Shown here piece by piece: positions 5,640 to 56,565 of a stretch of 64,000 nt of DNA. This stretch comes from Brooklawnia cerclae (GTDB lineage Bacteria; Actinomycetota; Actinomycetes; Propionibacteriales; Propionibacteriaceae). Each line of letters opens with the position of its first letter. The stretch's first letter is position 1. The DNA is taken from contig NZ_JAAMOZ010000003.1 of the NCBI RefSeq assembly GCF_011758645.1, positions 173,725 through 237,724 of the forward strand, written 5' to 3'. The notes beneath the pieces are model-generated. The model saw only the letters and a list, made by a program, of their open reading frames with translations, did no database searches and was not told the DNA's origin. The translations under genes were made by a program, and so were the position numbers.

Positions 5640-5800
5640 TCCCACCGTCGCGGGCGCCGCGGACTGATCGCCCATTGTTGCGGACGCCGCGGACCGATCG
5701 CCCCCTTGTTGCGGACGCCGCGGACCGATCACCCCATATGTTGCGGACGCGCGGACCGATCGCCCCCTTGTTGCGGACGCCGCGGACAGATCGCCCCATT
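5640..5800. repeat. tandem repeat, unit about 30-33 bp
   Basis: Five to six imperfect copies of a unit containing TTGTTGCGGACGCCGCGG followed by ACCGATCGCCCC are strung together between the convergent genes ending at 5622 and 5915. The copies differ by small changes (ATATGTTGCGGACGCGCGGA in one). The repeat carries no ORF of coding character. It resembles a decayed intergenic repeat rather than a CRISPR array because there are no unique spacers. Confidence 0.75.
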
Positions 5801-5914: not shown

Positions 5915-7309
5915 TCAGCGCCTTCCGGCCGCCTTCTTCCGTAGCGCCGCGATGTCCAGGACGCCCGCGCCCGCCGGGTCCTCGGACTCCGCGGCCTCCT
6001 CCCACGGGTCGACGACGGCGGGCAGCCCCTCGGTCACGGTGTCGTCGAGGTAGCCCAGCGAGGGGTCGTAGGGATTGACCGGGACCCGGGCGTCGGGTGC
6101 CGCCGCGGTCAGGCTCGACATCTCCTCGTCCGGAAGCGTGCGCAGCACGTCACGGATGTAGCCCGCTGTGGCCTCGGGCGTCGGCACAGGGCGATGCTCG
6201 CGCTCGGACTGGTACCACCGGTAGTCGAGTATCTCGTGGTACAGCTGCGCCGGGTCGCGCTTGCGGACCAGGTCGGGCGGGATCATGTGGACGACGGGCT
6301 CGAAGCACTCGGTGAGCCAGCGGTGGGCGGCGACGGCCTCGTCCACCTGCTGCAGGTCGTGGCGGGCCACGAACGTGTCGAGGTCGTTGAGCAACCTGCG
6401 GGCCTGGTTCTCCTCGGTGTCGAGGCCGGTGAGGCGCAACAGGCGACGGGAGTGATGACCCGCGTCCACGACCTTGGGTTGGATCTTGATCATCTTGCCG
6501 TCCAGCGAGGTCGAGATGTCGAGCTCGGCGATGTCGAAGCCGAGCGCGTTGAGGCGCCGGACGCGTCCCTCGATGCGATCGAGCTGGCTCCCGCTGAACT
6601 CCTCGACGCCGGTCAGCTCGTCCCACAGCTCCTCGTAGCGCGACTCGATCGTCTGGACCATCGTCAGCGGCTCGAGCGACTCGGCCAGCAGGCCGCCGGC
6701 TTCCAGGTCGCAGAAATCGCCGAAGATGTTGACGCGCGCGATCTGCAGGTCGCTGGCGCGCTGGCCGTCGGTGAGCCGGTCGTGCAGTTCGCCGGTCTCG
6801 GCGTCGACCAGGTACGCGGCGAACTCCCCGGCGTCGCGTCGGAACAGGATGTTCGACAGCGAGACATCGCCCCACATGAAGCCGCTCAGGTGGAGCCGGG
6901 CGATCAGGACGACCATCGCGTCCAGCAGGCGCAGCACGGTCTCGTTGCGGACGCCGGGGGTGAACAGAGAGCGGTAGGGCAGTGCGAACTCGAGATGCCG
7001 GGTGAGCAGTATCGGGTCGAGCGGTGTGCCGTCGGCGGCCTGCCTGCCGCTGACCACTCCTATCGGCTCGACCGACGGGGTGCGCAGACGGCGCAGGTCG
7101 TGCAGCAGCCGGTACTCGTGGATGGCCAGCGACTCGTTGACCTCCTTGGCCGCGAACACGTCGCCACCCACCCGGATGAACCGCACGACGTGGCGGGAGA
7201 TGCCACGCGGCAGCGCGACGAGGTACTGCTCGGGCCACTCCGCCAGCGGTTGCGCCCAGGGTAGGGGCAGCAACCGGGAGTCAGGCGTGGCGGACAGGAA
7301 TCGTGGCAC
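5915..7309 (-). CDS. DUF4032 kinase-fold protein
   Basis: The 464-residue protein matches the architecture of actinobacterial DUF4032 proteins: an N-terminal kinase-like fold with FIRVGGDVFAAKEVNE (lysine site) and HLSGFMWGDVSLSNILFRRD (catalytic-loop-like, with D and N), then a C-terminal DUF4032 helical domain with WYQSEREHRP. The family resembles the lipopolysaccharide kinase and ABC1 groups, but its substrate is not established. It is a common stand-alone cytosolic gene in this phylum. The start at 7309 is the furthest upstream ATG; MPRFLSATPDSRLLPLP is a plausible N-terminus. Confidence 0.82.
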   Translation of the reverse strand: MPRFLSATPDSRLLPLPWAQPLAEWPEQYLVALPRGISRHVVRFIRVGGDVFAAKEVNESLAIHEYRLLHDLRRLRTPSVEPIGVVSGRQAADGTPLDPILLTRHLEFALPYRSLFTPGVRNETVLRLLDAMVVLIARLHLSGFMWGDVSLSNILFRRDAGEFAAYLVDAETGELHDRLTDGQRASDLQIARVNIFGDFCDLEAGGLLAESLEPLTMVQTIESRYEELWDELTGVEEFSGSQLDRIEGRVRRLNALGFDIAELDISTSLDGKMIKIQPKVVDAGHHSRRLLRLTGLDTEENQARRLLNDLDTFVARHDLQQVDEAVAAHRWLTECFEPVVHMIPPDLVRKRDPAQLYHEILDYRWYQSEREHRPVPTPEATAGYIRDVLRTLPDEEMSSLTAAAPDARVPVNPYDPSLGYLDDTVTEGLPAVVDPWEEAAESEDPAGAGVLDIAALRKKAAGRR

Positions 7310-10672: not shown

Positions 10673-10800
10673 GGCCCGCGCGAGGACGGGCGACCCCTCG
10701 TTTCGACAGGCTCAACGAGCATCCAGCCCGTGTGGCCCGCGCGAGGACGGGTGGCCCTTCGTTTCGACAGGCTCAACGAGCATCCAGCCCGTTGCGGCAC
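10673..10800. repeat. 61-bp tandem duplication with TTCGACAGGCTCA palindrome
   Basis: Two copies (about 10673-10733 and 10734-10794) share GGCCCGCGCGAGGACGGG, then CTCGTTTCGACAGGCTCAAC and GAGCATCCAGCCCG. CGTTTCGACAGGCTCAACG is a partial palindrome of the same family seen at 7370-7725. The block lies between the divergent genes at 10605 and 10861. Confidence 0.8.
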
Positions 10801-36729: not shown

Positions 36730-37902
36730 TCACAGCGCGGTCACGGAAACCGAACCGGCGCCGGCGAAGGTGCCAGTGGCCGAGACCACCGCCGGAGCGG
36801 ACAGCGTGATGGTCTTCGTGACAGTGCCGGTGACGCTCGCCGTCACCCCGGACAGTGCGTTCAGGGCGGTCTCGATGGCCTCCGCGGACGCGTTGTAGGC
36901 GATCGCCGCGGTGGTGGCCGCACCGACCGTCAGGGTGAAGGTGTCACCCGACGCCCCGCCGGAGACGACGAGATCCCAGGTGCGTGCGGCGCCATCGGCG
37001 TCCTTGAACACCACGAAGGCGTTGACGTCGAGGATCGCCCAGCCGAAGATGACCTCAGCCAGGTAGGCGACGCTGTTGCGGCGCTGGAGGTCTCCGTTGC
37101 CGAACGGGTCGCCGTACTCGATCTTCTTGACCGGGATGTTCAGCGCGTACCCGTACTTGAGGGCGCTGAAGTCTCCGGCGATCGCACGGACCTTGGTGTC
37201 GGCGACAGCATCAACCTGCCCGGACACCGTCTTCGACACGGCGGTGGTCAGCCCGTTGAACGAGTCGATCTGGTTCGAGAAGCCCAGTTCCGGGTAGTAG
37301 CGCTGGCCGTTCTTCTGGTTGACGGCCTGGCGCAGTCGGGCGACGAACTTCGGATCCATGGCGAATCCGGTGAAGTCGTACCCGGCATCGGTGACCACAC
37401 CGTACCCGGCCTCGATCTCGGCGTCGATGTTGTTGATGTCGACCAGCTCGTAGCTGGGCGCGGTGTCCAGCGCCACGTCGCCCTGTTCGATCGCGGTGCC
37501 CGAGGCTGCGACGAGCTTGTGGAACACTGCCAGGTCGATCTGCCGGGCGAGAGCCTCGGACAGTTCGGTCTGGAGCAGGCCGAGTACCCCGGACGGGTTC
37601 TGCTCGATCGACTCGATGGTGAACTCCAGGCCGACCTGGGCCTTGATCGGGCGGATGACCTTCGCGCCGAGCTCAAGCTGGCTGTCGGTCTTGTTTCCGC
37701 CCTCACCGACGATCGTCGCGGCAGGGCGGGCGGTCAGGGTCGGGAAGATGTTGTCGCCGAGGATGACCGGGGACGACTGCGCGAGCCTGGGGACGATGGA
37801 AGCGGCGGTCGCCTTCTTCCAGATCTCGTCAGAGACGCGGCGGGGGAGGAGGTTGGTGCCTCCCGTGCCGCCGACGAGGGTGGTGGTAGTCAGAGTGGCC
37901 AT
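36730..37902 (-). CDS. major capsid protein, HK97 fold
   Basis: The 390-residue protein has a typical HK97 course: N-arm (NLLPRRVSDEIWKKATAASI), E-loop region (KVIRPIKAQVGLEFTIESIE), P-domain helix (ELSEALARQIDLAVFHKLVA) and A-domain strand region. About 90 extra C-terminal residues (VVSGGASGDTFTLTVGAATT to GAGSVSVTAL) look like an Ig-like decoration domain. Scaffold and portal genes lie upstream in normal order. Confidence 0.88.
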   Translation of the reverse strand: MATLTTTTLVGGTGGTNLLPRRVSDEIWKKATAASIVPRLAQSSPVILGDNIFPTLTARPAATIVGEGGNKTDSQLELGAKVIRPIKAQVGLEFTIESIEQNPSGVLGLLQTELSEALARQIDLAVFHKLVAASGTAIEQGDVALDTAPSYELVDINNIDAEIEAGYGVVTDAGYDFTGFAMDPKFVARLRQAVNQKNGQRYYPELGFSNQIDSFNGLTTAVSKTVSGQVDAVADTKVRAIAGDFSALKYGYALNIPVKKIEYGDPFGNGDLQRRNSVAYLAEVIFGWAILDVNAFVVFKDADGAARTWDLVVSGGASGDTFTLTVGAATTAAIAYNASAEAIETALNALSGVTASVTGTVTKTITLSAPAVVSATGTFAGAGSVSVTAL

Positions 37903-42249: not shown

Positions 42250-43665
42250 TCATCCGATGTGGAACCTCTGGAATGCCGCGGTGGCACCGTTCAGGCAGTT
42301 GAGTGCTTGGGTGAGGGCGTCGACGACGTCGTCGTGTGAGGCGTTCGGGAATCCGGCCAGTTCCTCGACCGCGTCGTCCGCCCAACTGGCGACCGAGTTG
42401 GCCGGCAGGTGCACGTTGCCTGCTGCGCACAAGGGGGTGACGGCGTTCGCCCTGGCCACCTTCGATTCGTGCGGGGTGACCGGGATGATGCCGGGCAGCT
42501 TCTTGTTCAGCGAGTCGATGACCGCCGGGCCGTTCGCCTTGTCCTCGATCAGCTTGGCGGTGGCCTGTGGCCAGCGGCGCGACATGTCCACGATCTGCTC
42601 GATCGTCTCGGTGAACGACCACCGGCCGCGCACCTGGTCGAGGAGCCAGAAGTCGGCACCTTGGCGCATCCACACCTGCCCGACGACGAAGTCCGAGCTG
42701 TCGGTTCCCTTGAAGGTGAGATCCCAGGACTGGATGAATGTGCCGGTCAGTTGCGGGACGCGCGTCCAGCGCTTCCACCAGTCGCGTTTGAAGATCCCGC
42801 CCTCGGCGGGAGAGGGATGGCCTTGGTACATCGCGTTCCACACGCGCGGGCCGACGGTGCGCTTCCTGCTCTCCCACTGCTCGCGGGTGCGGGGCGTGCC
42901 GTCCCTGTTGCGCCGGGCGGAGATCATGTACTCGCCCGCCTGGCGTCCGAGCGGGTCGGTGGCCGGGTCCTCGCACTGGGCGGGGATGTTGACGATGCGC
43001 CAGCCCGCGTGCGTGTCGCGCTCGACCAGGCGGCCGATGAGGTCGTCCTCATGCCAGCGGGTCATGATGACGACGACGGGTGCGCCGGGTGCGAGGCGGG
43101 CGGACAGCGACTCGGTCCACCAGTCCCAGCAGTCGTCGCGGGCCAGCTCCGAGTCGGCCTCGGTGCGGTTCACCGGATCGTCGATGACGATCATGTCGGC
43201 TGGCCGACCGTCGACACCGGCGCCGCGTCCGACAGACAGGACGCCGCCGCGATGGCCCTCCAGCTCCCACTCGTGCTTGGAGCCGTTGTCGCGGGAGATC
43301 GCGAGTCCGAGTTGAGGCACCGAGCTGATAGCACGGCGGATCATCAGGCCGTTGCGGTTGGCGAGGCTCTGGTTGTAGGCGCCGGCGACGACGCGGGTGT
43401 CGGGGTTGCGCTCCAGTGCGCGGATGACGAAGTCGCGGACGACGCGAGTTGTCTTGCCTTCCTGCGGCGGCATCGAGATCCCGAGCCGCCCGTCAGGTGT
43501 GGCGAGCAGCCGATCCAGCTCGGCGTCGATGAGGTCGAGTGCCGGAGTCTGCACGGTGCGGGGGTCGATGAGCGTGGCGATCTGACCGGGGGTGAGGGCG
43601 TCGGCGTGCTGGGCCGCGTCGAGCATGCCGAGCATGGCGTCGGCGGTGGCCGAGGGGATCGACAC
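42250..43665 (-). CDS. terminase large subunit
   Basis: The 471-residue packaging motor has a Walker A variant MPPQEGKTTR (about 65-74), Walker B DMIVIDDPV, a coupling segment VVVIMTRWHEDDLIGRLVE and a C-terminal RNase H-like nuclease (IQSWDLTFKGTDSSDFVVGQ, LIEDKANGPAVID, NASHDDVVDAL). It cuts and packages concatemeric DNA into the procapsid. Confidence 0.93.
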   Translation of the reverse strand: MSIPSATADAMLGMLDAAQHADALTPGQIATLIDPRTVQTPALDLIDAELDRLLATPDGRLGISMPPQEGKTTRVVRDFVIRALERNPDTRVVAGAYNQSLANRNGLMIRRAISSVPQLGLAISRDNGSKHEWELEGHRGGVLSVGRGAGVDGRPADMIVIDDPVNRTEADSELARDDCWDWWTESLSARLAPGAPVVVIMTRWHEDDLIGRLVERDTHAGWRIVNIPAQCEDPATDPLGRQAGEYMISARRNRDGTPRTREQWESRKRTVGPRVWNAMYQGHPSPAEGGIFKRDWWKRWTRVPQLTGTFIQSWDLTFKGTDSSDFVVGQVWMRQGADFWLLDQVRGRWSFTETIEQIVDMSRRWPQATAKLIEDKANGPAVIDSLNKKLPGIIPVTPHESKVARANAVTPLCAAGNVHLPANSVASWADDAVEELAGFPNASHDDVVDALTQALNCLNGATAAFQRFHIG

Positions 43666-46692: not shown

Positions 46693-46769
46693 CGCCCCAA
46701 CCTCCCGCTCTGGCTACCCTGTTTGCCGGTCATCATCCATGAGGTTTCCATCGCCTCGGCACGTCTCAT
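46689..46769 (-). CDS. 26-residue micro-ORF joined by ATGA on both sides
   Basis: ATG 46769 overlaps the helicase TGA and its own TGA overlaps the ATG at 46692. The product is MRRAEAMETSWMMTGKQGSQ plus SGRLGR. It fills the gap exactly and may be a real small protein or a translation relay between its neighbours. No family recognised. Confidence 0.45.
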   Translation of the reverse strand: MRRAEAMETSWMMTGKQGSQSGRLGR

Positions 46770-48130
46770 GAGGGCTGGCCCTCCTGCTCGTCGTCGCCGG
46801 CTTCCCCGCGCGTCTCCCACGGGTTCGCCGGTGTGTCGATCGCCGCGACCCAGCCGCGCTGGAGCAGGGTGAGGGCCCCGCGTCTGCCTGCCCGGTTCTT
46901 CTCGACGAGCAGGTCGAGGCGTGACGGGTCGTCGCGCGGGTCGGGGTGGTGCATGAGCATCACGACGTCGGCGTCCTGCTCGATCGCCCCGGACTCGCGC
47001 AGATCGCTCATGGTTGGCTTCTTGTCGGACCGTGAGACCAGCGCCCGGTTGAGCTGCGACAGGGCGACGACCGGGACGGCGAGGTCCTTTGCGGTCAGCT
47101 TGAGGATGCGGCTCATCTCGGCGACCTCCTGCTCGCGAGATCGCGATGACGCCCGGCCTCCGAGCGGTGTGAGGAGCTGGAGGTAGTCGACGACGAGCAG
47201 GCCGAGCCCTCCGCGGCGTTGGAGGTCGCGGGCGGTGGCCTTGATGGTCGTGACGGTCTGGGCGGGGCTGTCGTCGATGTGGATGCGATCGGCGTAGGTG
47301 AGCATGCGTGCGACTCCGGTGTTGATCTGGCGCCAGTCGGTCTCGGACTGGTGCGTGCCGCTGATGGTGGCGAGGTTGACCCCCGAGGCGTGGGCGAGCA
47401 TCCGGGTGCGGATCTCGTCGGCGGTCATCTCGACGGTCGACAGGAGGACGCGTTCCCCGTGCCTGGCTGCGTGTTCGGCGAGGTTCTGGCCGATGAGGCT
47501 CTTGCCCTCGGCCGGTCTGCCTCCGACGATGTAGAGCCGTCCGGGCCTCAGGCCGCCGATGAGGTCGTTGAGCTTGGCCCACGGGGTGGGGATCCCGGCT
47601 GCCTGTGGTGCGCCGATGGCGTCGACGAGCGCTTCGAGTCCGTCGGCGGCGGTCGCGGTGGTGTGCCGGACTGCCGGGTCGATCCGGTCGAGGGTGCGCT
47701 GGGCTTCGTCGACGAGCTCGGAGGGCCCGAGGCTTCCCTGGAGTGCCATCTGCTGGATGCGGGTGGCGGCGTCGGCGGTGCGGCGCCTGACGGCCTTCTC
47801 GTGGACGATCTCGGCCCATGCGGGGGCGTTGGCGACCACGGTGACCGCCGAGACGCAGTCGGCCAGTCCGGTGGAGCCTCCGAGCGCGGCGAGTGTGTCG
47901 GCTGGCAGGACGTCGGCGACGGTGATCGGGTCGATGACCTGGCCGGTCTCGTGGCGTGCGACCAGGACGCGCCAGGTCTGCTCGTGTGCGGGCTGGTACA
48001 GGTCGTCGGGGGTGATGATCCCGGTCAGCTCGTCGATGACGCGCGGGTCGATCATGGCGGCGCCGAGGATGGCCTTCTCGGCGTCTGGGTCGTAGGGGGC
48101 TGGCCGGTCGAGGGCGGCCGGGACGGTCAT
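46766..48130 (-). CDS. dnaB: replicative DNA helicase, DnaB type
   Basis: The 454-residue protein has the DnaB N-terminal domain (about 10-120, PYDPDAEKAILGAAMIDPRV) and a RecA-type C-terminal ATPase with Walker A IVGGRPAEGKS (about 201-211), Walker B LLVVDYLQLL, and SQLNRALVSRSDKKPTMSDL. It unwinds the fork ahead of the polymerase. ATGA coupling to the initiator gene suggests that the initiator loads it. Confidence 0.92.
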   Translation of the reverse strand: MTVPAALDRPAPYDPDAEKAILGAAMIDPRVIDELTGIITPDDLYQPAHEQTWRVLVARHETGQVIDPITVADVLPADTLAALGGSTGLADCVSAVTVVANAPAWAEIVHEKAVRRRTADAATRIQQMALQGSLGPSELVDEAQRTLDRIDPAVRHTTATAADGLEALVDAIGAPQAAGIPTPWAKLNDLIGGLRPGRLYIVGGRPAEGKSLIGQNLAEHAARHGERVLLSTVEMTADEIRTRMLAHASGVNLATISGTHQSETDWRQINTGVARMLTYADRIHIDDSPAQTVTTIKATARDLQRRGGLGLLVVDYLQLLTPLGGRASSRSREQEVAEMSRILKLTAKDLAVPVVALSQLNRALVSRSDKKPTMSDLRESGAIEQDADVVMLMHHPDPRDDPSRLDLLVEKNRAGRRGALTLLQRGWVAAIDTPANPWETRGEAGDDEQEGQPS

Positions 48131-51891: not shown

Positions 51892-52250
51892 GCGGCTACT
51901 GCTTCCTCTCGTCTTTCGTGCCATTCGGCGTGGCAGTTCCCGGCGGCGTCGATGTATCTCGGTAGCTCGATCTGGTACCAGATCGCGTCGGCGAGGAGGG
52001 GCTCACCGATCTGGTGGAGCCGTTGGCGCAGGCAGAGCCACGACCGGTAGCCGAGACGGTGGGCGATGGATTCGGCGGTGTCGGTCCCGGCGAGCCATGC
52101 GGCGTCCTCGGTAAGGGTGCTCGCTGTGGGGCTCTGGGCGCGGACCTTTCCCCAGTGGACGATGCACCAGCCGTGGCGGTAGCGGGCTCGTCCGCAGCCC
52201 TTGACGACGCAGTCCGGGGAGGTGCGTCTGGTGCTCCAGCTGACCCTCAT
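51888..52250 (-). CDS. zinc/HTH-like protein, paralogue of 51170-51517
   Basis: The 120-residue protein has the knuckle CVVKGCGRARYRHGWCIVHW and the helix pair AESIAHRLGYRSWLCLRQRL. ATG 52250 overlaps the CysH stop (ATGA), which shows that the CRISPR-like operon continues directly into phage genes. Confidence 0.65.
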   Translation of the reverse strand: MRVSWSTRRTSPDCVVKGCGRARYRHGWCIVHWGKVRAQSPTASTLTEDAAWLAGTDTAESIAHRLGYRSWLCLRQRLHQIGEPLLADAIWYQIELPRYIDAAGNCHAEWHERREEAVAA

Positions 52251-53014
52251 CTTGCGCCGCCGATCTCATCAGGGGTGTGCCTGACGATGTCGGGGTAGTA
52301 GTGAGCTTCCCAGTCGGCGCGCTGTTTGTGGGCGTTGCTGATTCCGCCGATCGGGGAGACGCGCAGCCACCGGCGGTCGAGCTTCCCGCCGTAACTCATG
52401 GCGTAAGCGGGGTGGATGGGCAGATCGTGTCGGTGGAGATAGGCGTACACGTCGATCGCTGTCCAGCGGGCGATTGGGCGGCAGGCATTCGGCCCAGCCT
52501 CGCCCCACTGCCCGACGACGATGCGGCGCATGCGTGACTCCTCGGCACGGATGCCGGTGATGTGGCGGGAGCCGTGGTGTCGTTCCGCTTCGGCGAACTG
52601 TGATCCGACGTGCGAGCCTTTGCGCTGGAGGCGGTCTATGTCTGCGTTGTCCCACCAGCGCAGGCCGCCGTCGACGAAGTACTCGTGGTAGTCGACGAGG
52701 TGGCCGTAGCGTTCCAGGAACGCGTCTCTGACCAGCAGGCACTCTGGGGACTCCCATATGCGCATCCGGACGTAGACCAGCGGCAGGACGACGCCGCTGG
52801 TGGCAACCAGGTGGGCGACGCAGGTGGAGTCCTTTCCCCACGACGTGGACGCATAGCATACTCCTGCCCCAGCGAACTCATTGATCACGCGGTGGGCCCT
52901 GGCCTCCTTGGCTGGCCAATCTGCCCGTTTGGCGAACGCCGTGTCGTAGCGCTCCAGGTTGGCCCATGCGCGCTTGTCCTGCGGGCTGAGCCGTGGCGAG
53001 TCGATCAGTCCCAC
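52247..53014 (-). CDS. CysH-like PP-loop protein of type IV-B CRISPR locus
   Basis: GTG 53014 overlaps the winged-helix gene stop. The 255-residue protein has the PP-loop STSWGKDSTCVAHL (about 55-68) and ends of the PAPS-reductase fold (HITGIRAEESRMRRIVVGQW, CRPIARWTAIDVYAYLHRHD). It lacks the C-terminal redox cysteine region of true PAPS reductase. CysH-like proteins are a hallmark neighbour of type IV-B CRISPR-Cas loci, where their role is unknown; adenylation or nucleotide modification is a guess. A DndC-like role was considered but no dnd genes are present. Confidence 0.82.
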   Translation of the reverse strand: MGLIDSPRLSPQDKRAWANLERYDTAFAKRADWPAKEARAHRVINEFAGAGVCYASTSWGKDSTCVAHLVATSGVVLPLVYVRMRIWESPECLLVRDAFLERYGHLVDYHEYFVDGGLRWWDNADIDRLQRKGSHVGSQFAEAERHHGSRHITGIRAEESRMRRIVVGQWGEAGPNACRPIARWTAIDVYAYLHRHDLPIHPAYAMSYGGKLDRRWLRVSPIGGISNAHKQRADWEAHYYPDIVRHTPDEIGGAR

Positions 53015-53247
53015 AGTCCCTCCTCGGTGCTGCCTGGCGTCTCCTGGCCGCGTGTGAGTGGTATGCCGCGGTGCCAGGAGCCGCGGTGGTCGTGGACGGC
53101 GTGGCCGCCACGCTCCATGTCGAGGAGCGTGGCGGCCACGGTGGCGACGGGGATGCCGAGTTCGGCGGCGATGACTGGCGGCACGGTGGTGCGCCGCCGG
53201 TCTCGTCTGGCCGGGAGCCAGTCCCAGATGGCCTGGGCCGTGGTCAT
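53005..53247 (-). CDS. small winged-helix protein between csf3 and cysH
   Basis: ATG 53247 overlaps the csf3 stop (ATGA). The 80-residue product (MTTAQAIWDWLPARRDRRRT) has PPVIAAELGIPVATVAATLL and then ERGGHAVHDHRGSWHRG, a winged-helix pattern. It may regulate the operon or be a phage gene caught inside it. Confidence 0.65.
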   Translation of the reverse strand: MTTAQAIWDWLPARRDRRRTTVPPVIAAELGIPVATVAATLLDMERGGHAVHDHRGSWHRGIPLTRGQETPGSTEEGLWD

Positions 53248-53873
53248 GCCGCCGACCATGCTGAGCAGGGCGCCCATGTGGTGCGGTGCCAGTACGGTGG
53301 CCGGACGGGGGTCATCTCCCCGCCGGGGGCCGGGAGCGGCCGGTCTCGCCAGCCATCCGGCTCGTGGGACGGCTCGACCACCCACCGGGCGACGTGCCCG
53401 AATCCGTTGCGCCAGCGTGCCGACACGCTGGTCGTCGCTGCGAGGAGCCGGCACAACTCATCGGGGTCGGTGACCAGGGCGTTCCAGCGCATTGCCGACA
53501 CGATCCGGGCCGACAGGGTGGTGTTGCGGGCCTTGGTGGGCCCGAGTCCGGCGTGATGCTTGGGCAGCACGGTGAACAGGGCCATCGCCTCGGTGGCAGG
53601 CTTGCGGCGGACCTCGACAGCGGTCCACTTGAGGATGCGCTCGTGCGCCTTGGAGCAGCACCATCCCCATGTCCCATCGATCTCCCACCGCTGGAACGGC
53701 ATGGGGATCGGGAACACGAAGTCGTCGCGGATCGGCGGGAGGACGCGCCCTTGCTGGGTGGCCAGGGCTGCCCATGTGAACGACAGCGGGCCGTCGAGGA
53801 TGACGCCGCGCTCCAGGGCCACCACCGCGCTCGTGAGGAACGCGGTGATGGCCATCGGCTGGGCCTCGCTCAT
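53244..53873 (-). CDS. csf3: Csf3-like (Cas5) subunit
   Basis: The 209-residue RAMP has an N-terminal ferredoxin-like strand with ALERGVILDGPLSFTWAALA (about 18-38). The glycine-rich region SARWRNGFGHVARWVVEPS (about 160-178) closes it, with a helical insertion between. This matches Csf3 of type IV effector complexes, which caps the 5' handle of the guide RNA. ATGA overlaps link it to csf2 and the winged-helix gene. Assignment rests on motif and order. Confidence 0.78.
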   Translation of the reverse strand: MSEAQPMAITAFLTSAVVALERGVILDGPLSFTWAALATQQGRVLPPIRDDFVFPIPMPFQRWEIDGTWGWCCSKAHERILKWTAVEVRRKPATEAMALFTVLPKHHAGLGPTKARNTTLSARIVSAMRWNALVTDPDELCRLLAATTSVSARWRNGFGHVARWVVEPSHEPDGWRDRPLPAPGGEMTPVRPPYWHRTTWAPCSAWSAA

Positions 53874-54748
53874 TTCGTGAGGTCCTCGACCAGCTGGAGG
53901 ATGTCGTCACGCCGGTCGGCGATGTGGGCGGTCCACGCCGCCAGGTCGGCGCTGGTATCGGGCAGCCCGGCGATGGCAGCCCGGCCGTATCCCTGGGCGG
54001 TCTTGGCGCCGAGGAGCGCCTCGCCGCCGGGGGCCCACAGTGCGAGCGCGGCACCCAGGACCGTGCGGTGTGCGGCGGTGGCTCCGTGCTGGAGGGCGAG
54101 TTGTCCCGACAGCGACGCCCCGGCGATGAGCACCTGGGTGTCGAAGATCATCTGGGTGGTCTTCACGGTGGAGCCGAGCAGGGTGTCGGCCTGCTCCAGC
54201 AGGGTGGCGACGGGCGTGGATGCCACGTCGTGGCGGGTGCCGAACTCCTCGCCCCGCCATGCTGCGGCGGGCTTGGTGTCCGGCGCTCCAGGGATCCGCC
54301 ACTGGTTTTCCCGGCACACCAGGATGGCGTCGGAGGCCCGCAGCGTCCCGGACACGATGTCGGAGTGCGCCGAGTACCCGAACAGGGCGAGCGCCGGGAA
54401 GACCTCCTCAACACGCCGGGCCATGCCGAGGTCGACCTCAGCGCCGGTGGAGGTGACTGACCCGCCGGTCCACAGCAGATCGACGCCGAGCTTCGACCAC
54501 ACGACCGCCGGCGGGCGCAGGTCGAGGGTGGACACGAGATGCCAGGCGATCCGGTCGCGCAGGGCGTGGCGGATGGAGGCGGCCGACAGGAACGGCACCT
54601 GGGCGACCGTCCCGTCGGGCTGGGCGACGTCCTGGGTGCGCAGAAGGGCGGTGTTTCCGGAGTTCCCGGCACCGTGGTGGAACGGCGACAGCAGTGTGGC
54701 GGTGTAGTTGATGGTCTCCTGCTGGGCAGGGATGATGGTGGTGGTCAT
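53870..54748 (-). CDS. csf2: Csf2-like (Cas7) backbone subunit
   Basis: The 292-residue protein begins with a RAMP strand INYTATLLSPFHHGAGNSGN and has TALLRTQDV, QVPFLSAASIRHALRDRIAW and a helical middle, then GAKTAQGYGRAAI near its C-terminus. Csf2 subunits polymerise along the RNA to form the backbone of type IV complexes. The start overlaps the Cas11-like stop by one base (TGATG). Confidence 0.85.
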   Translation of the reverse strand: MTTTIIPAQQETINYTATLLSPFHHGAGNSGNTALLRTQDVAQPDGTVAQVPFLSAASIRHALRDRIAWHLVSTLDLRPPAVVWSKLGVDLLWTGGSVTSTGAEVDLGMARRVEEVFPALALFGYSAHSDIVSGTLRASDAILVCRENQWRIPGAPDTKPAAAWRGEEFGTRHDVASTPVATLLEQADTLLGSTVKTTQMIFDTQVLIAGASLSGQLALQHGATAAHRTVLGAALALWAPGGEALLGAKTAQGYGRAAIAGLPDTSADLAAWTAHIADRRDDILQLVEDLTK

Positions 54749-55152
54749 CAGAAGATTGCCTCTTCGGTGTCGGTGGTCGGTTCGGGGTCGGGCTTGGGGG
54801 TTTTGCGGCTGGTGTTCTCGACTCTGGCCAGGGCGACGATGTAGACGAGGTTGCGGGCAACGTGGGCCTGCCACTGGCTGTAGTGGCCCTCGATGCGCCC
54901 GCCGAGCTTGGTGATGGTCTTGGATGCCTCCAGCGCGAGCTGGGGGATCTGGAGCTTGCGGGCGGCGATCGTGACAGCCTGGGGCCACGCCTCTCCACCG
55001 GCGGCTGCGGTCTCGATGGCGGTGGCTGCGCGTCCCTGCCAGAAGTCGAGGCGGGACACATCCTCGGTGAGGGAGTCGCGCAGGGCAAAGACCAGGTCGA
55101 CGGTGATGTCGTCGAGGTCGTCAGCGGTCAGCAGGGTAAGTGGCTGTGTCAT
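54748..55152 (-). CDS. Cas11-like small subunit
   Basis: The 134-residue protein is almost all helix (LDDITVDLVFALRDSLTEDV, AVTIAARKLQIPQLALEASK, HYSQWQAHVARNLVYIVALA) and ends in an acidic, proline-rich tail. Length, fold and place between csf1 and csf2 fit Cas11 of type IV-B complexes. It overlaps csf1 by 32 bases. Sequence of this family is poorly conserved, so the call rests mainly on context. Confidence 0.72.
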   Translation of the reverse strand: MTQPLTLLTADDLDDITVDLVFALRDSLTEDVSRLDFWQGRAATAIETAAAGGEAWPQAVTIAARKLQIPQLALEASKTITKLGGRIEGHYSQWQAHVARNLVYIVALARVENTSRKTPKPDPEPTTDTEEAIF

Positions 55153-55882
55153 TGGTGATGTCCTTCGTGATCGTCCAGAGCGCGAGCTCCAGGAGTGGTG
55201 AGCCGAGCCACGGCAGCAGCCCGGCGTTGAGGTCCCGCCATGCGGCGAGCTGGTCGGGGGTCTTGACGTACTGGGGTTCCCCGGCCATGACGGCCTCGGC
55301 TGGGACGCCGAGTCTGCGCAGGCCGAGGGTGCAGGCGTGGACCTGGCGCCATTGGGCCGGGTTGGCGGTGACGCTGTGGTCCTCGGCCCGCACCGTCCAC
55401 TGTCCGCTGCCGTGGTTGACCGCAGCGAACGGCAGCACATGCTTCTGCCCGGACAGCGCCACAGAGACGAGCCAGTCCCCGGACGGCGGGTCGGCCAGTA
55501 TGTCGATGACCGGCCGCGTGCTGGCCCGTGAGGTGAGGCACAGCCCGGGAGTGTCCTGGAGGAACGCCTTGGGCTGCGAGTCCGGGAGATCGGCTCCAGG
55601 TGAGGCGACGATCGTCCACATCCGAAGCGTGTTCGGCGGCTTGCCAGATGCGCACCACAGGCATGCCGGGCAGATGTCCGGGCTGTCGTGGCGCTGGAGA
55701 TGCCCCTGGTCGGGGAAATTCTTCCCGAGCGCCCGGTCCGCGTTCGCTGTGACCGGCGAGTCGTGGCCGCACATCGCGCACACGCCCGGGGAGTCCTTGA
55801 GGTGTGCGGCCGTCCCCGGTGCGGTGATCCGCGGTCGCCCGGCCAGATCCCAGACGAGCCGTGTGGACGAGGTCTCGGTCAT
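55121..55882 (-). CDS. csf1: Csf1-like (Cas8-type) subunit
   Basis: The 253-residue protein carries the Csf1 zinc-binding pairs VCAMCGHDS (Cys35/Cys38) and ICPACLWCASG (Cys71/Cys74/Cys77). A conserved segment PNTLRMWTIVASPGADLPDS follows. The C-terminal half is helical (AQWRQVHACTLGLRRLGVPA, AGLLPWLGSPLLELALWTIT). Csf1 is the signature large-subunit-like protein of type IV. ATG 55882 overlaps the Cas6e-like stop (ATGA). Confidence 0.82.
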   Translation of the reverse strand: MTETSSTRLVWDLAGRPRITAPGTAAHLKDSPGVCAMCGHDSPVTANADRALGKNFPDQGHLQRHDSPDICPACLWCASGKPPNTLRMWTIVASPGADLPDSQPKAFLQDTPGLCLTSRASTRPVIDILADPPSGDWLVSVALSGQKHVLPFAAVNHGSGQWTVRAEDHSVTANPAQWRQVHACTLGLRRLGVPAEAVMAGEPQYVKTPDQLAAWRDLNAGLLPWLGSPLLELALWTITKDITNDTATYPADR

Positions 55883-56475
55883 GGCGTCACCCCGTCGACC
55901 AGGATCAGGCCGCACCCGTATGCCTTCTCCTTGCCGATACCGGCGCGGATCAGGCGGCCGAGGACGACCGGGTCATCCACGGTGGCGGTGCCGCTGAACG
56001 CCATCCTGGCCATGGTGATGACGTGGCCCGGCTTGACGGCCCGCACCGTGGGCAGTCGCTGGCAGGTGACGTCGAGCCCGGACAGTGCCCCATCGAGACG
56101 AGCAGCAACCCACTCGGGCCACTCACTCTCGGGAACCAGCCCGCGCGCCATCTTCACCCGGACGCGCTCGTCGTTGTATACCCACTTCGTCTTCGTCGGG
56201 TTGAGGAGCCCGGACACCCGCACCCTAGTCCCGGCCGGGAACGCGGTGCGGCGCGGCCCGCTGGCTGTGACGGTCGCCAGGCCGGTGAGCATGTCGGTGA
56301 GCATGCCCGGCGCCGGGGATTGCACGAGGATGGTGGCCCGGTCGGGCCACGCCCACAGTGCTCTGTCCCCGGACGTGTTCTTCGATGAGGTGGCGATGAC
56401 GGTGTGCCATTCCCTGATCGGCACGCGCATGCCTTGTGGCGTGAGGGACAGTCTTGTCAGGACGATACCGTCCAC
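55879..56475 (-). CDS. Cas6e-like CRISPR RNA-processing RAMP
   Basis: GTG 56475 is preceded by AAAGGAGA. The 198-residue product has the Cas6e course: VLTRLSLTPQ strand, REWHTVIATS with a candidate catalytic His24, the typical ATILVQSPAP strand, and the glycine-rich loop GIGKEKAYGCGLILV (about 179-193). Cas6e cleaves repeat hairpins and stays bound to the guide. Type IV-B loci usually lack Cas6, so its presence is unusual. An upstream ATG at 56565 in the same frame would add a DUF4406-like leader of 30 residues. Confidence 0.82.
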   Translation of the reverse strand: MDGIVLTRLSLTPQGMRVPIREWHTVIATSSKNTSGDRALWAWPDRATILVQSPAPGMLTDMLTGLATVTASGPRRTAFPAGTRVRVSGLLNPTKTKWVYNDERVRVKMARGLVPESEWPEWVAARLDGALSGLDVTCQRLPTVRAVKPGHVITMARMAFSGTATVDDPVVLGRLIRAGIGKEKAYGCGLILVDGVTP

Positions 56476-56565
56476 GCTTGTCTCCTTTCTCTGGTCGGCC
56501 ACGAAAAAGGCCTCCCGGTTGAGGTCCGGGAGGCCTGTCATTGGTCCTGCGACGTAGGTGATCAT
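56476..56565 (-). pseudogene. truncated DUF4406 N-terminus fused in frame upstream of cas6e
   Basis: From ATG 56565, which overlaps the upstream stop (ATGA), the frame reads MITYVAGPMTGLPDLNREAF and FVADQRKETS before the cas6e start. YVAGPMTGLPDLNREAFF is the opening signature of DUF4406 proteins, but the remainder of that domain is missing. It looks like the 5' remnant of a displaced gene, left in frame with Cas6e. Confidence 0.6.
56508..56536 (-). terminator. 11-bp hairpin with T-run just before cas6e
   Basis: AGGCCTCCCGG (56508-56518) pairs with CCGGGAGGCCT (56526-56536), and the minus strand continues with TTTTTCG. It sits inside the DUF4406 remnant, 33 bases before the cas6e GTG. It may attenuate entry into the CRISPR-like operon. 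Confidence 0.65.

What the first reader, a model, noticed from the sequence alone, without database searches (positions are those of the whole stretch)
52247..56475. Type IV-B-like CRISPR-Cas operon carried inside a prophage early operon
Seen: consecutive, mostly ATGA-coupled genes with Csf1 zinc pairs, a small helical subunit, Csf2 and Csf3 RAMP motifs and a CysH-like PP-loop protein. Known: this gene set defines type IV-B, described mainly from actinobacterial plasmids, without adaptation genes or arrays. Inference: here a temperate phage carries it in the same transcript as its replication genes, so it may act during infection or induction against rival elements.
Basis: partly seen in the sequence, partly recalled or inferred. 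Interest (0 to 1): 0.95.

Follow-up and report, generated by a model that had tools for sequence, protein, structure and literature searches.

The report
Prophage Cas complex likely steals crRNAs
Viruses resident in bacterial chromosomes carry a CRISPR-like gene set with its own guide-RNA-cutting type of enzyme, and although most of the checked hosts hold exact CRISPR matches to their resident virus and keep unbroken CRISPR genes, the virus persists, so the gene set likely takes over the host's guide RNAs and would thereby blunt its immunity.

Summary
In detail: window 56475-52247 (-) encodes Cas6e, Csf1, Cas11, Cas7, Cas5, a small winged-helix-like protein and a CysH-like protein, overlapping head to tail in a siphophage-like prophage. 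There is more. The Cas6e, which type IV-B is said to lack, has the CasE fold and occurs in all 21 loci of one Cas7 clade (100/100 support). A second copy sits in a complete prophage of the same genome. Nine of 10 host genomes checked have type I-E (0 of 4 with cas6-less IV-B; backgrounds 43/198 and 80/201). In 8 of those 9 the host I-E array holds perfect spacers against its own IV-B prophage region, 74 of 599 spacers in all, including 12 AA-PAM spacers among the first 21 in the window's host. Of 20 I-E genomes without IV-B, one has perfect self-matches in its first 8 spacers. No array or I-E repeat was found in the prophages. Best reading: a phage-borne IV-B variant whose Cas6e would process host I-E crRNAs into Csf complexes and so block interference. 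Guide theft itself is untested; a separate Acr, or guided use of stolen crRNAs, is not excluded.

The parts
55879..56475 (-). cas6e-like crRNA endoribonuclease (198 aa, GTG start), His24 nearly invariant
   Evidence: PF08798 1.5e-17, PADLOC Cas6e 4e-21; AF2 pLDDT 93; best fold match E. coli Cascade 4tvx_A, E 4.6e-13, TM 0.78; 19-row alignment
55121..55882 (-). csf1 (Cas8-like large subunit, two CxxC pairs)
   Evidence: PADLOC Csf1_0_IV 1.7e-35; TIGR03114 4.3e-6, below its cut-off
54748..55152 (-). cas11-like small subunit
   Evidence: PADLOC typeIV_Cas11 2.5e-44
53870..54748 (-). cas7/csf2 backbone subunit
   Evidence: PADLOC typeIV_Cas7 1.3e-93; profile A1 finds the solved IV-B Csf2 7jhy, 2.8e-15
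53244..53873 (-). cas5/csf3
   Evidence: PADLOC Csf3_0_IV 5.9e-24; TIGR03116 3.3e-11, below its cut-off
53005..53259 (-). small winged-helix-like protein (84 aa); matched by its own HMM in 7 of 21 clade loci; a similar-looking stretch ends the CysH-like frame in L034 and L039
   Evidence: weak DprA_WH match 0.018, below cut-off; own HMM; frame ends read by eye
52247..53014 (-). CysH-like PP-loop protein, STSWGKDS loop
   Evidence: PF01507 7.3e-10; AF2 pLDDT 89.8; best fold matches PAPS reductases
56508..56536 (-). terminator-like hairpin with a T run just before cas6e
   Evidence: 11-pair stem; -29 kcal/mol, z -4.4
56476..56565 (-). in-frame start of a DUF4406-like gene, remnant at the operon's 5' edge
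   Evidence: PF14359 3.6e-5, over its cut-off, residues 2-45 of the longer frame
46766..48130 (-). phage DnaB-like helicase downstream
   Evidence: PHROG 19, 4.2e-92
42250..43665 (-). phage terminase large subunit
   Evidence: PHROG 38, 8.9e-107
36730..37902 (-). phage major head protein
   Evidence: PHROG 10, 2.4e-42

Best explanation
This is a temperate-phage type IV-B-like operon with its own Cas6e, which is predicted to cut and hold the host's type I-E pre-crRNA and hand it to a Csf1/Cas11/Cas7/Cas5 complex, a step that would starve host Cascade and let the prophage live despite matching spacers. Shown: the genes, the predicted Cas6e fold and its conserved histidine, the fixed clade, the I-E hosts, the perfect self-targeting spacers beside unbroken I-E effector genes, and no array or I-E repeat found in the prophages. 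Inferred: that the phage Cas6e accepts host repeats, that the Csf complex forms on host crRNAs, that this blocks interference, and that the CysH-like protein modifies or locks the captured complex.
For: Cas6e in 21 of 21 clade loci and in none of 5 other IV-B-like loci; the Cas7 tree splits by it. The Cas6e model matches I-E CasE/Cse3; His24 is conserved in at least 90% of 19 rows. Cse1 in 9 of 10 carriers against 0 of 4 cas6-less IV-B genomes (p 0.005), stratified p 0.016 against two backgrounds. Perfect self-spacers 74 of 599; at least one in the first 8 spacers in 7 of 9 lysogens against 1 of 20 controls (p 1.7e-4). In the window's host all 19 C1 matches of up to 4 mismatches lie between the 49-bp att repeats of a 49.2-kb prophage, and the 12 perfect ones all have AA before the protospacer. 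No spacer of 8 arrays matched another genome's prophage region at 80% or more. I-E effector genes each lie in a single long open frame in 8 of 8 lysogens whose locus was covered. No I-E repeat in the prophage regions above the best of 10 shuffles, 8 of 8 genomes. By BLASTP no gene outside the operon is common to all nine prophages compared.
Against: The prophages were picked for carrying IV-B, so the shared-gene result is partly circular, and small unrelated Acr genes would not show in it. The Mycobacterium JS623 IV-B complex did not enrich co-expressed I-E crRNAs (PMC7937560, passages and Discussion), though that operon has no Cas6 of its own. Corynebacterium phocae (G200) carries the clade without Cse1. 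N. farcinica (G199) has 0 of 5 matches, with array and prophage only partly covered; G065 1 of 21; G204 has no perfect match in its first 8. One control, G053, has 8 of 8 perfect self-spacers without IV-B. Controls are not matched for prophage content: 4 of 20 have a PF03354 TerL hit, a marker that also missed all but one of the IV-B prophages. Within Corynebacterium alone the I-E link is not significant (3 of 4 against 77 of 197, p 0.17); carriers are related, so not independent. In the window's own prophage only 1 spacer matches perfectly.
Confidence: 0.5

Rival explanations
1. Guide hijack: the Csf complex loads host I-E crRNAs and uses them as guides, to silence or modify (through CysH) matching DNA or RNA of rival phages or of the prophage itself. 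Host immune memory would be reused rather than just removed.
For: A full effector gene set with Csf1, Cas5 and an invariant SWG[KR]DS PP-loop (16 of 16), more than a sponge seems to need; host arrays rich in spacers matching the prophage. CAST systems can use host crRNAs through Cas6 (PMC11656645, passage).
Against: No test of target strand or target gene was made here; a guided effector programmed by self-matching spacers would act on its own prophage, which needs a non-lethal action. No nuclease gene was recognised in the operon.
Confidence: 0.25
2. A separate, unrecognised anti-CRISPR protein, or silenced I-E expression, explains survival; the IV-B operon acts elsewhere, for example in inter-phage competition or on non-specific RNA.
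For: Known Acrs are diverse in sequence (PMC6990116, passages); small early genes near the operon have no NCBIfam family (0 of 10) and only unknown-function PHROGs or none, save one weak pyrophosphohydrolase match. JS623 IV-B bound heterogeneous RNA (PMC7937560). G053 shows self-spacers without IV-B.
Against: It must recur in eight genomes whose prophages share little besides the operon by BLASTP, and does not explain the Cas6e or the I-E link.
Confidence: 0.2
3. The matches are past immunity: spacers were acquired from related infecting phages and the lysogen is tolerated only because targeting is weak or the repressed prophage escapes.
For: In the window prophage 1 match is perfect and the others have 1-5 mismatches, as expected for old spacers; the strand imbalance of hits in G000 (22 to 9) and G198 (9 to 21) could reflect primed adaptation.
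Against: Perfect, AA-PAM matches inside a resident prophage with unbroken I-E effector genes; two controls with TerL genes had 0 of 80 and 1 of 190.
Confidence: 0.05

Closest known systems
Type IV-B CRISPR-Cas (Mycobacterium sp. JS623 Csf complex, 7JHY)
   Same: csf1, cas11, csf2, csf3 and, as a rule in IV-B, a cysH-like gene; no adaptation genes, no array; its Csf2 is the best sequence match among solved chains
   Different: Here a Cas6e starts the operon, the carrier is a prophage and most hosts checked have type I-E. The JS623 operon is on a megaplasmid, has no Cas6, and its complex did not enrich I-E crRNAs (PMC7937560)
Type I-E Cas6e (CasE/Cse3)
   Same: Predicted fold and a conserved histidine near the N terminus
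   Different: Sits in a phage operon without a repeat of its own; identity to the I-E structures in the fold search about 18-25%
Type IV-A with Cas6/Cas6e
   Same: Type IV effector with a Cas6-family enzyme (PMC8175902)
   Different: No DinG and no array here; Cas11 and CysH present
Fuxivirus atypical IV-B (Bathyarchaeia virus, PMC10848311)
   Same: Virus-encoded IV-B with CysH, proposed to interfere with host immunity
   Different: It has a mini-array; the term Cas6 does not occur in the paper's main text; passages report one host spacer on its cas7, not a series on a resident provirus
Skermania phage SPI1 orfs 40-44 (KR011061)
   Same: Phage-borne csf1, cas7, cas5 and cysH relatives
   Different: No cas6e match; lies in the cas6-less Cas7 group
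Anti-CRISPR proteins and Racr RNAs
   Same: Would let a prophage coexist with matching spacers
   Different: Here a multi-subunit Cas complex is the candidate; PMC11656645 (passage) calls it an enigma that viruses widely recruited CRISPR RNAs as inhibitors but, with few exceptions, not Cas proteins

Membership tests
Type IV-B CRISPR-Cas | csf1, csf2 (cas7), csf3 (cas5) | tested here: met
   curated NCBIfam cut-offs for TIGR03114, 03115 and 03116 not reached
Type IV-B CRISPR-Cas | cas11-like small subunit | tested here: met
   2.5e-44
Type IV-B CRISPR-Cas | cysH-like accessory gene | tested here: met
Type IV-B CRISPR-Cas | no CRISPR array | tested here: met
   screen of the window found only two small clusters, at 5.7 and 10.7 kb, outside the recognised prophage genes and not examined, no I-E repeat in 8 genomes' prophage regions
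Type IV-B CRISPR-Cas | no crRNA-processing enzyme | tested here: not met
   Cas6e present; so filed as a variant, not a plain member
Type IV-B CRISPR-Cas | carried mainly on plasmids (a tendency, not strict) | tested here: not met
   phage genes around it; type IV in some prophages is known (PMC11656645)
Type IV-A | DinG helicase and own array | tested here: not met
   no such gene among the nine proteins from 51.5 to 56.6 kb; no array
Type IV-C | cas10-like large subunit in place of csf1 | tested here: not met
   csf1 present
Cas6e (type I-E crRNA endonuclease) | Cas6e fold and catalytic histidine | tested here: met
Cas6e (type I-E crRNA endonuclease) | cuts the host I-E repeat hairpin | not testable with these tools
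   needs biochemistry
Anti-CRISPR | blocks a CRISPR system in cells | not testable with these tools
   only self-targeting counts here

The most novel reading that the evidence does not exclude
Temperate phages use a multi-subunit Cas complex to steal the host's type I-E crRNAs and then act with them: the phage Cas6e loads host guides into Csf complexes, and the CysH-like enzyme, guided by them, marks or silences the very sequences the host has memorised, so each new host spacer against the prophage protects it rather than kills it.
Probability: 0.15. Interest if true: 0.97.

Novelty: new variant of a known kind. Interest (0 to 1): 0.87.

Why it matters
What type IV-B systems do is an open question, and crRNA scavenging and guide sponging have both been proposed (PMC8175902, PMC7937560, passages). 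This clade supplies what was missing: its own Cas6e, hosts with type I-E, and a footprint that can be read in genomes, host arrays with many exact spacers against the resident IV-B prophage. That makes the question directly testable with one operon, one host array and an interference assay. If true, phages use Cas protein complexes, not only RNA mimics or small Acrs, to disarm CRISPR.

Tried and rejected
A repeat cluster in the second prophage (C1:2091699-2092091) looked like an array in the first screen but is a coding-type tandem repeat. The search of genome contigs with the single Cas7 found nothing; with the alignment it found 7 loci. TerL PF03354 as a prophage marker was too narrow: 7 of 30 genomes, and only one hit (G204) lies by an IV-B operon. 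The homologue search with Cas6e returned 2 proteins, so loci supplied most of the Cas6e alignment. Looking for a known Acr among small early genes gave none. A lone I-E-like hairpin in G204, 24 kb from the operon, scores 19 of 28, under its best shuffle of 20, and was not pursued. Rows dropped before counts: two odd array intervals of 17 and 94 nt (against 48); loci L038, L041, L043, L045 and L053, taken as the same prophages as L031, L035, L036, L033 and L047 because all HMM scores are equal, left out of the tree; L017, L049 and L051 left out of the Cas6e alignment. Hosts of the other viral contigs were not looked for. Csf1, Cas11, Cas7 and Cas5 were not folded.
Full report
What is in the window. 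On the - strand, 56475 to 52247, seven overlapping genes encode Cas6e, Csf1, Cas11, Cas7/Csf2, Cas5/Csf3, an 84-aa winged-helix-like protein and a CysH-like PP-loop protein. The curated NCBIfam cut-offs for Csf1-3 and CasE are not reached, so these are distant members; PADLOC's broader models match strongly. The neighbours are phage genes: endolysin, tape measure, head, portal and TerL on the low side, DnaB-like helicase, replication initiator and RusA nearer, exonuclease on the high side. The window ends at the end of contig C3, so the rest of this prophage is not seen, and no integrase was recognised in it.

A second copy. The same genome holds a second operon at C1:2093.7-2098.2 kb. That prophage has both ends: a 49-bp direct repeat at 2081990 and 2131184, the latter in tRNA-Pro, an integrase just inside, portal, head protease and lysis genes. 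Between the two copies Cas6e, Csf1, Cas11 and Cas7 are 98.5-100% identical, but Cas5, the small protein and CysH only 74-81%, a mosaic break between the presumed RNA-capture half and the rest.

A clade with Cas6e. Alignment-based searches gave 16 viral contigs and 7 genome loci. Four are duplicates by equal scores; with the two own copies there are 21 distinct loci (G065 is one of the viral contigs; G321 was found later). HMM searches find cas6e, csf1, cas11, cas7, cas5 and cysH in that order in all 21 (L051's cas6e match is split over two frames and its cysH match is lower). Five other loci with csf1, cas7, cas5 and cysH matches, four contigs of the host's family and Skermania phage SPI1, have no cas6e match, and no cas11 match to this clade's model. 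The Cas7 tree separates the two groups with 100/100 support. The Cas6e model (pLDDT 93) best fits CasE/Cse3 of Cascade. The CysH-like protein keeps SWG[KR]DS in 16 of 16 rows; its predicted fold is closest to PAPS reductases and related PP-loop enzymes.

Hosts. Cse1, the I-E marker, is in 9 of the 10 genomes with the clade that could be searched: own, G065, G198, G199, G201, G202, G203, G204, G321; not G200, C. phocae. The four genomes with cas6-less IV-B have none. Backgrounds: 43 of 198 in the host's family, 80 of 201 in Corynebacterium (several of the 80 are weak or partial). Stratified p is 0.016; Corynebacterium alone 0.17. Five of the ten are Corynebacterium, so they are not independent. 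PMC7937560 (Discussion) cites a negative co-occurrence of IV-B with other CRISPR systems; the cas6-less group fits that, the phage clade does not.

Self-targeting. The window's host has a full I-E operon and a 169-repeat array at C1:2496461-2506778. Among its first 21 spacers 12 match the C1 prophage perfectly, all 12 with AA before the protospacer. All 19 C1 matches of up to 4 mismatches, in 100 kb searched, lie between the att repeats. Perfect matches to the own IV-B prophage region, of all usable spacers of the array: own 13 of 166 (12 on C1, 1 on the window's prophage), G065 1 of 21, G198 19 of 99, G199 0 of 5, G201 2 of 48, G202 16 of 75, G203 3 of 43, G204 3 of 28, G321 17 of 114 (two of the 17 hit one site): 74 of 599. 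Searched targets were 60 to 204 kb around the operon (11 kb for G199), not whole genomes. In G198 the prophage limits taken by hand from the matching viral contig are 8660-51143 of the 80-kb stretch; 30 of 30 matches lie in 8500-51143, two of them at or just outside the lower edge. No spacer of the eight arrays matched another genome's region. AA precedes 50 of 57 perfect matches; the two G201 ones were read with a 29-nt repeat, and one of them reads AA when shifted by a base. In G321, so shifted, A precedes 16 of 17 but AA only 4, so its PAM may differ.

Controls. The first 8 leader-side spacers of 20 I-E genomes without IV-B (12 Corynebacterium, 8 of the host's family) were searched over their whole genomes: 19 had no perfect match outside the array (two had one match at 91%), G053 had 8 of 8, seven at 1.20-1.37 Mb and one at 0.45 Mb of its chromosome; all five perfect matches known for the own spacers in the query were recovered. 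At most 14 candidates per genome were scored. Lysogens: 7 of 9 have a perfect match in the first 8; p 1.7e-4; for them only the prophage region was searched. Two controls with TerL genes, whole fetched arrays: G320 0 of 80, G393 1 of 190 (in G393 40 of 87 candidates were scored).

I-E genes. Cas3, Cse1, Cse2, Cas7e, Cas5e and Cas6e each lie in one long open frame in 8 of 8 lysogens whose locus was covered; G201's cas1 is split, and G199's contig holds only cas3 and cse1. Broken effector genes are therefore not the reason for survival; silenced expression or point changes are not excluded.

How it would work. Exact, PAM-bearing matches beside unbroken effector genes suggest that interference is blocked or bypassed in the lysogen. 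The operon has a Cas6 of the I-E kind but nothing was found in the prophage for it to process: no repeat above the best of 10 shuffles in 8 genomes. The simplest substrate is the host's pre-crRNA. Cas6e would cut it and keep the hairpin, Cas7 and Cas11 would coat the spacer, Cas5 and Csf1 would cap it, and Cascade would lose its guides. Each of these steps is inference. CysH's role is unknown; modification of RNA, DNA or protein is a guess from its fold class.

What is in print. Carriage of type IV by some phages and prophages is reported (PMC11656645, PMC10848311, passages). IV-B is described as lacking a crRNA-processing enzyme, with scavenging and sponge hypotheses (PMC8175902 passages; PMC7937560 passages and Discussion). 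The 2025 classification shows IV-B without arrays (PMC12669027, passages). The ten paper searches listed no title or abstract start joining IV-B, Cas6e and self-targeted prophages; I read passages of seven papers (PMC8175902, PMC12669027, PMC7937560, PMC11656645, PMC9071438, PMC6990116, PMC10848311) and no others. PADLOC holds generic type IV Cas6 models that match this Cas6e, so a Cas6 beside type IV is not unknown to database makers. Pinilla-Redondo et al. 2020 could not be read here.

Limits. Prophages were chosen by IV-B, so the finding that only operon genes are shared by all nine prophages compared (five operon genes in 9 of 9, Cas11 in 8 by BLASTP; otherwise at most 8, a 1,754-aa frame of G202, probably a tape measure) is partly circular. 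Controls are not matched for phage type. Nothing here shows RNA binding or inhibition.

Noticed in passing
window 56476-56565: The operon's 5' edge lies in the start of a DUF4406-like gene, in frame with cas6e, with a terminator-like hairpin; the same edge is seen in the second prophage (L017 about 6905-7000). It may mark where the module entered a phage gene.
   Followed up: partly
window 52247-53873 against L017 9563-11216: The two resident copies are nearly identical in cas6e to cas7 but 74-81% identical in cas5, the small gene and cysH, a mosaic break in the operon.
   Followed up: partly
L034, L039: A stretch resembling the 84-aa winged-helix-like protein ends the CysH-like frame, so the two may work together (read by eye).
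   Followed up: no
G053 array (L128): An I-E genome of the same genus without IV-B has 8 of 8 leader-side spacers matching its own chromosome perfectly, seven of them at 1.20-1.37 Mb, near the array at about 1.175 Mb.
   Followed up: no
L017 4700-5190: A coding-type tandem repeat in the second prophage mimics a CRISPR array in a simple screen.
   Followed up: yes
G204 C55 about 113906: A lone I-E-like hairpin with a handle-like tail, 24 kb from the IV-B operon; not above shuffles by identity.
   Followed up: no
Csf1 of L005, L031-L035, L039, L040: Eight of 19 clade Csf1 frames examined have no CxxC pair, so zinc binding is not a constant of this clade.
   Followed up: no
window 52877, 55119, 55565; array C1:2496461-2506778: Three host spacers match the IV-B operon itself (cysH, the csf1/cas11 border, csf1) with 2-3 mismatches, as if hosts had met the module before.
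   Followed up: no
window 5688-5770 and 10673-10775: Two small spaced-repeat clusters outside the recognised prophage genes in the first array screen.
   Followed up: no
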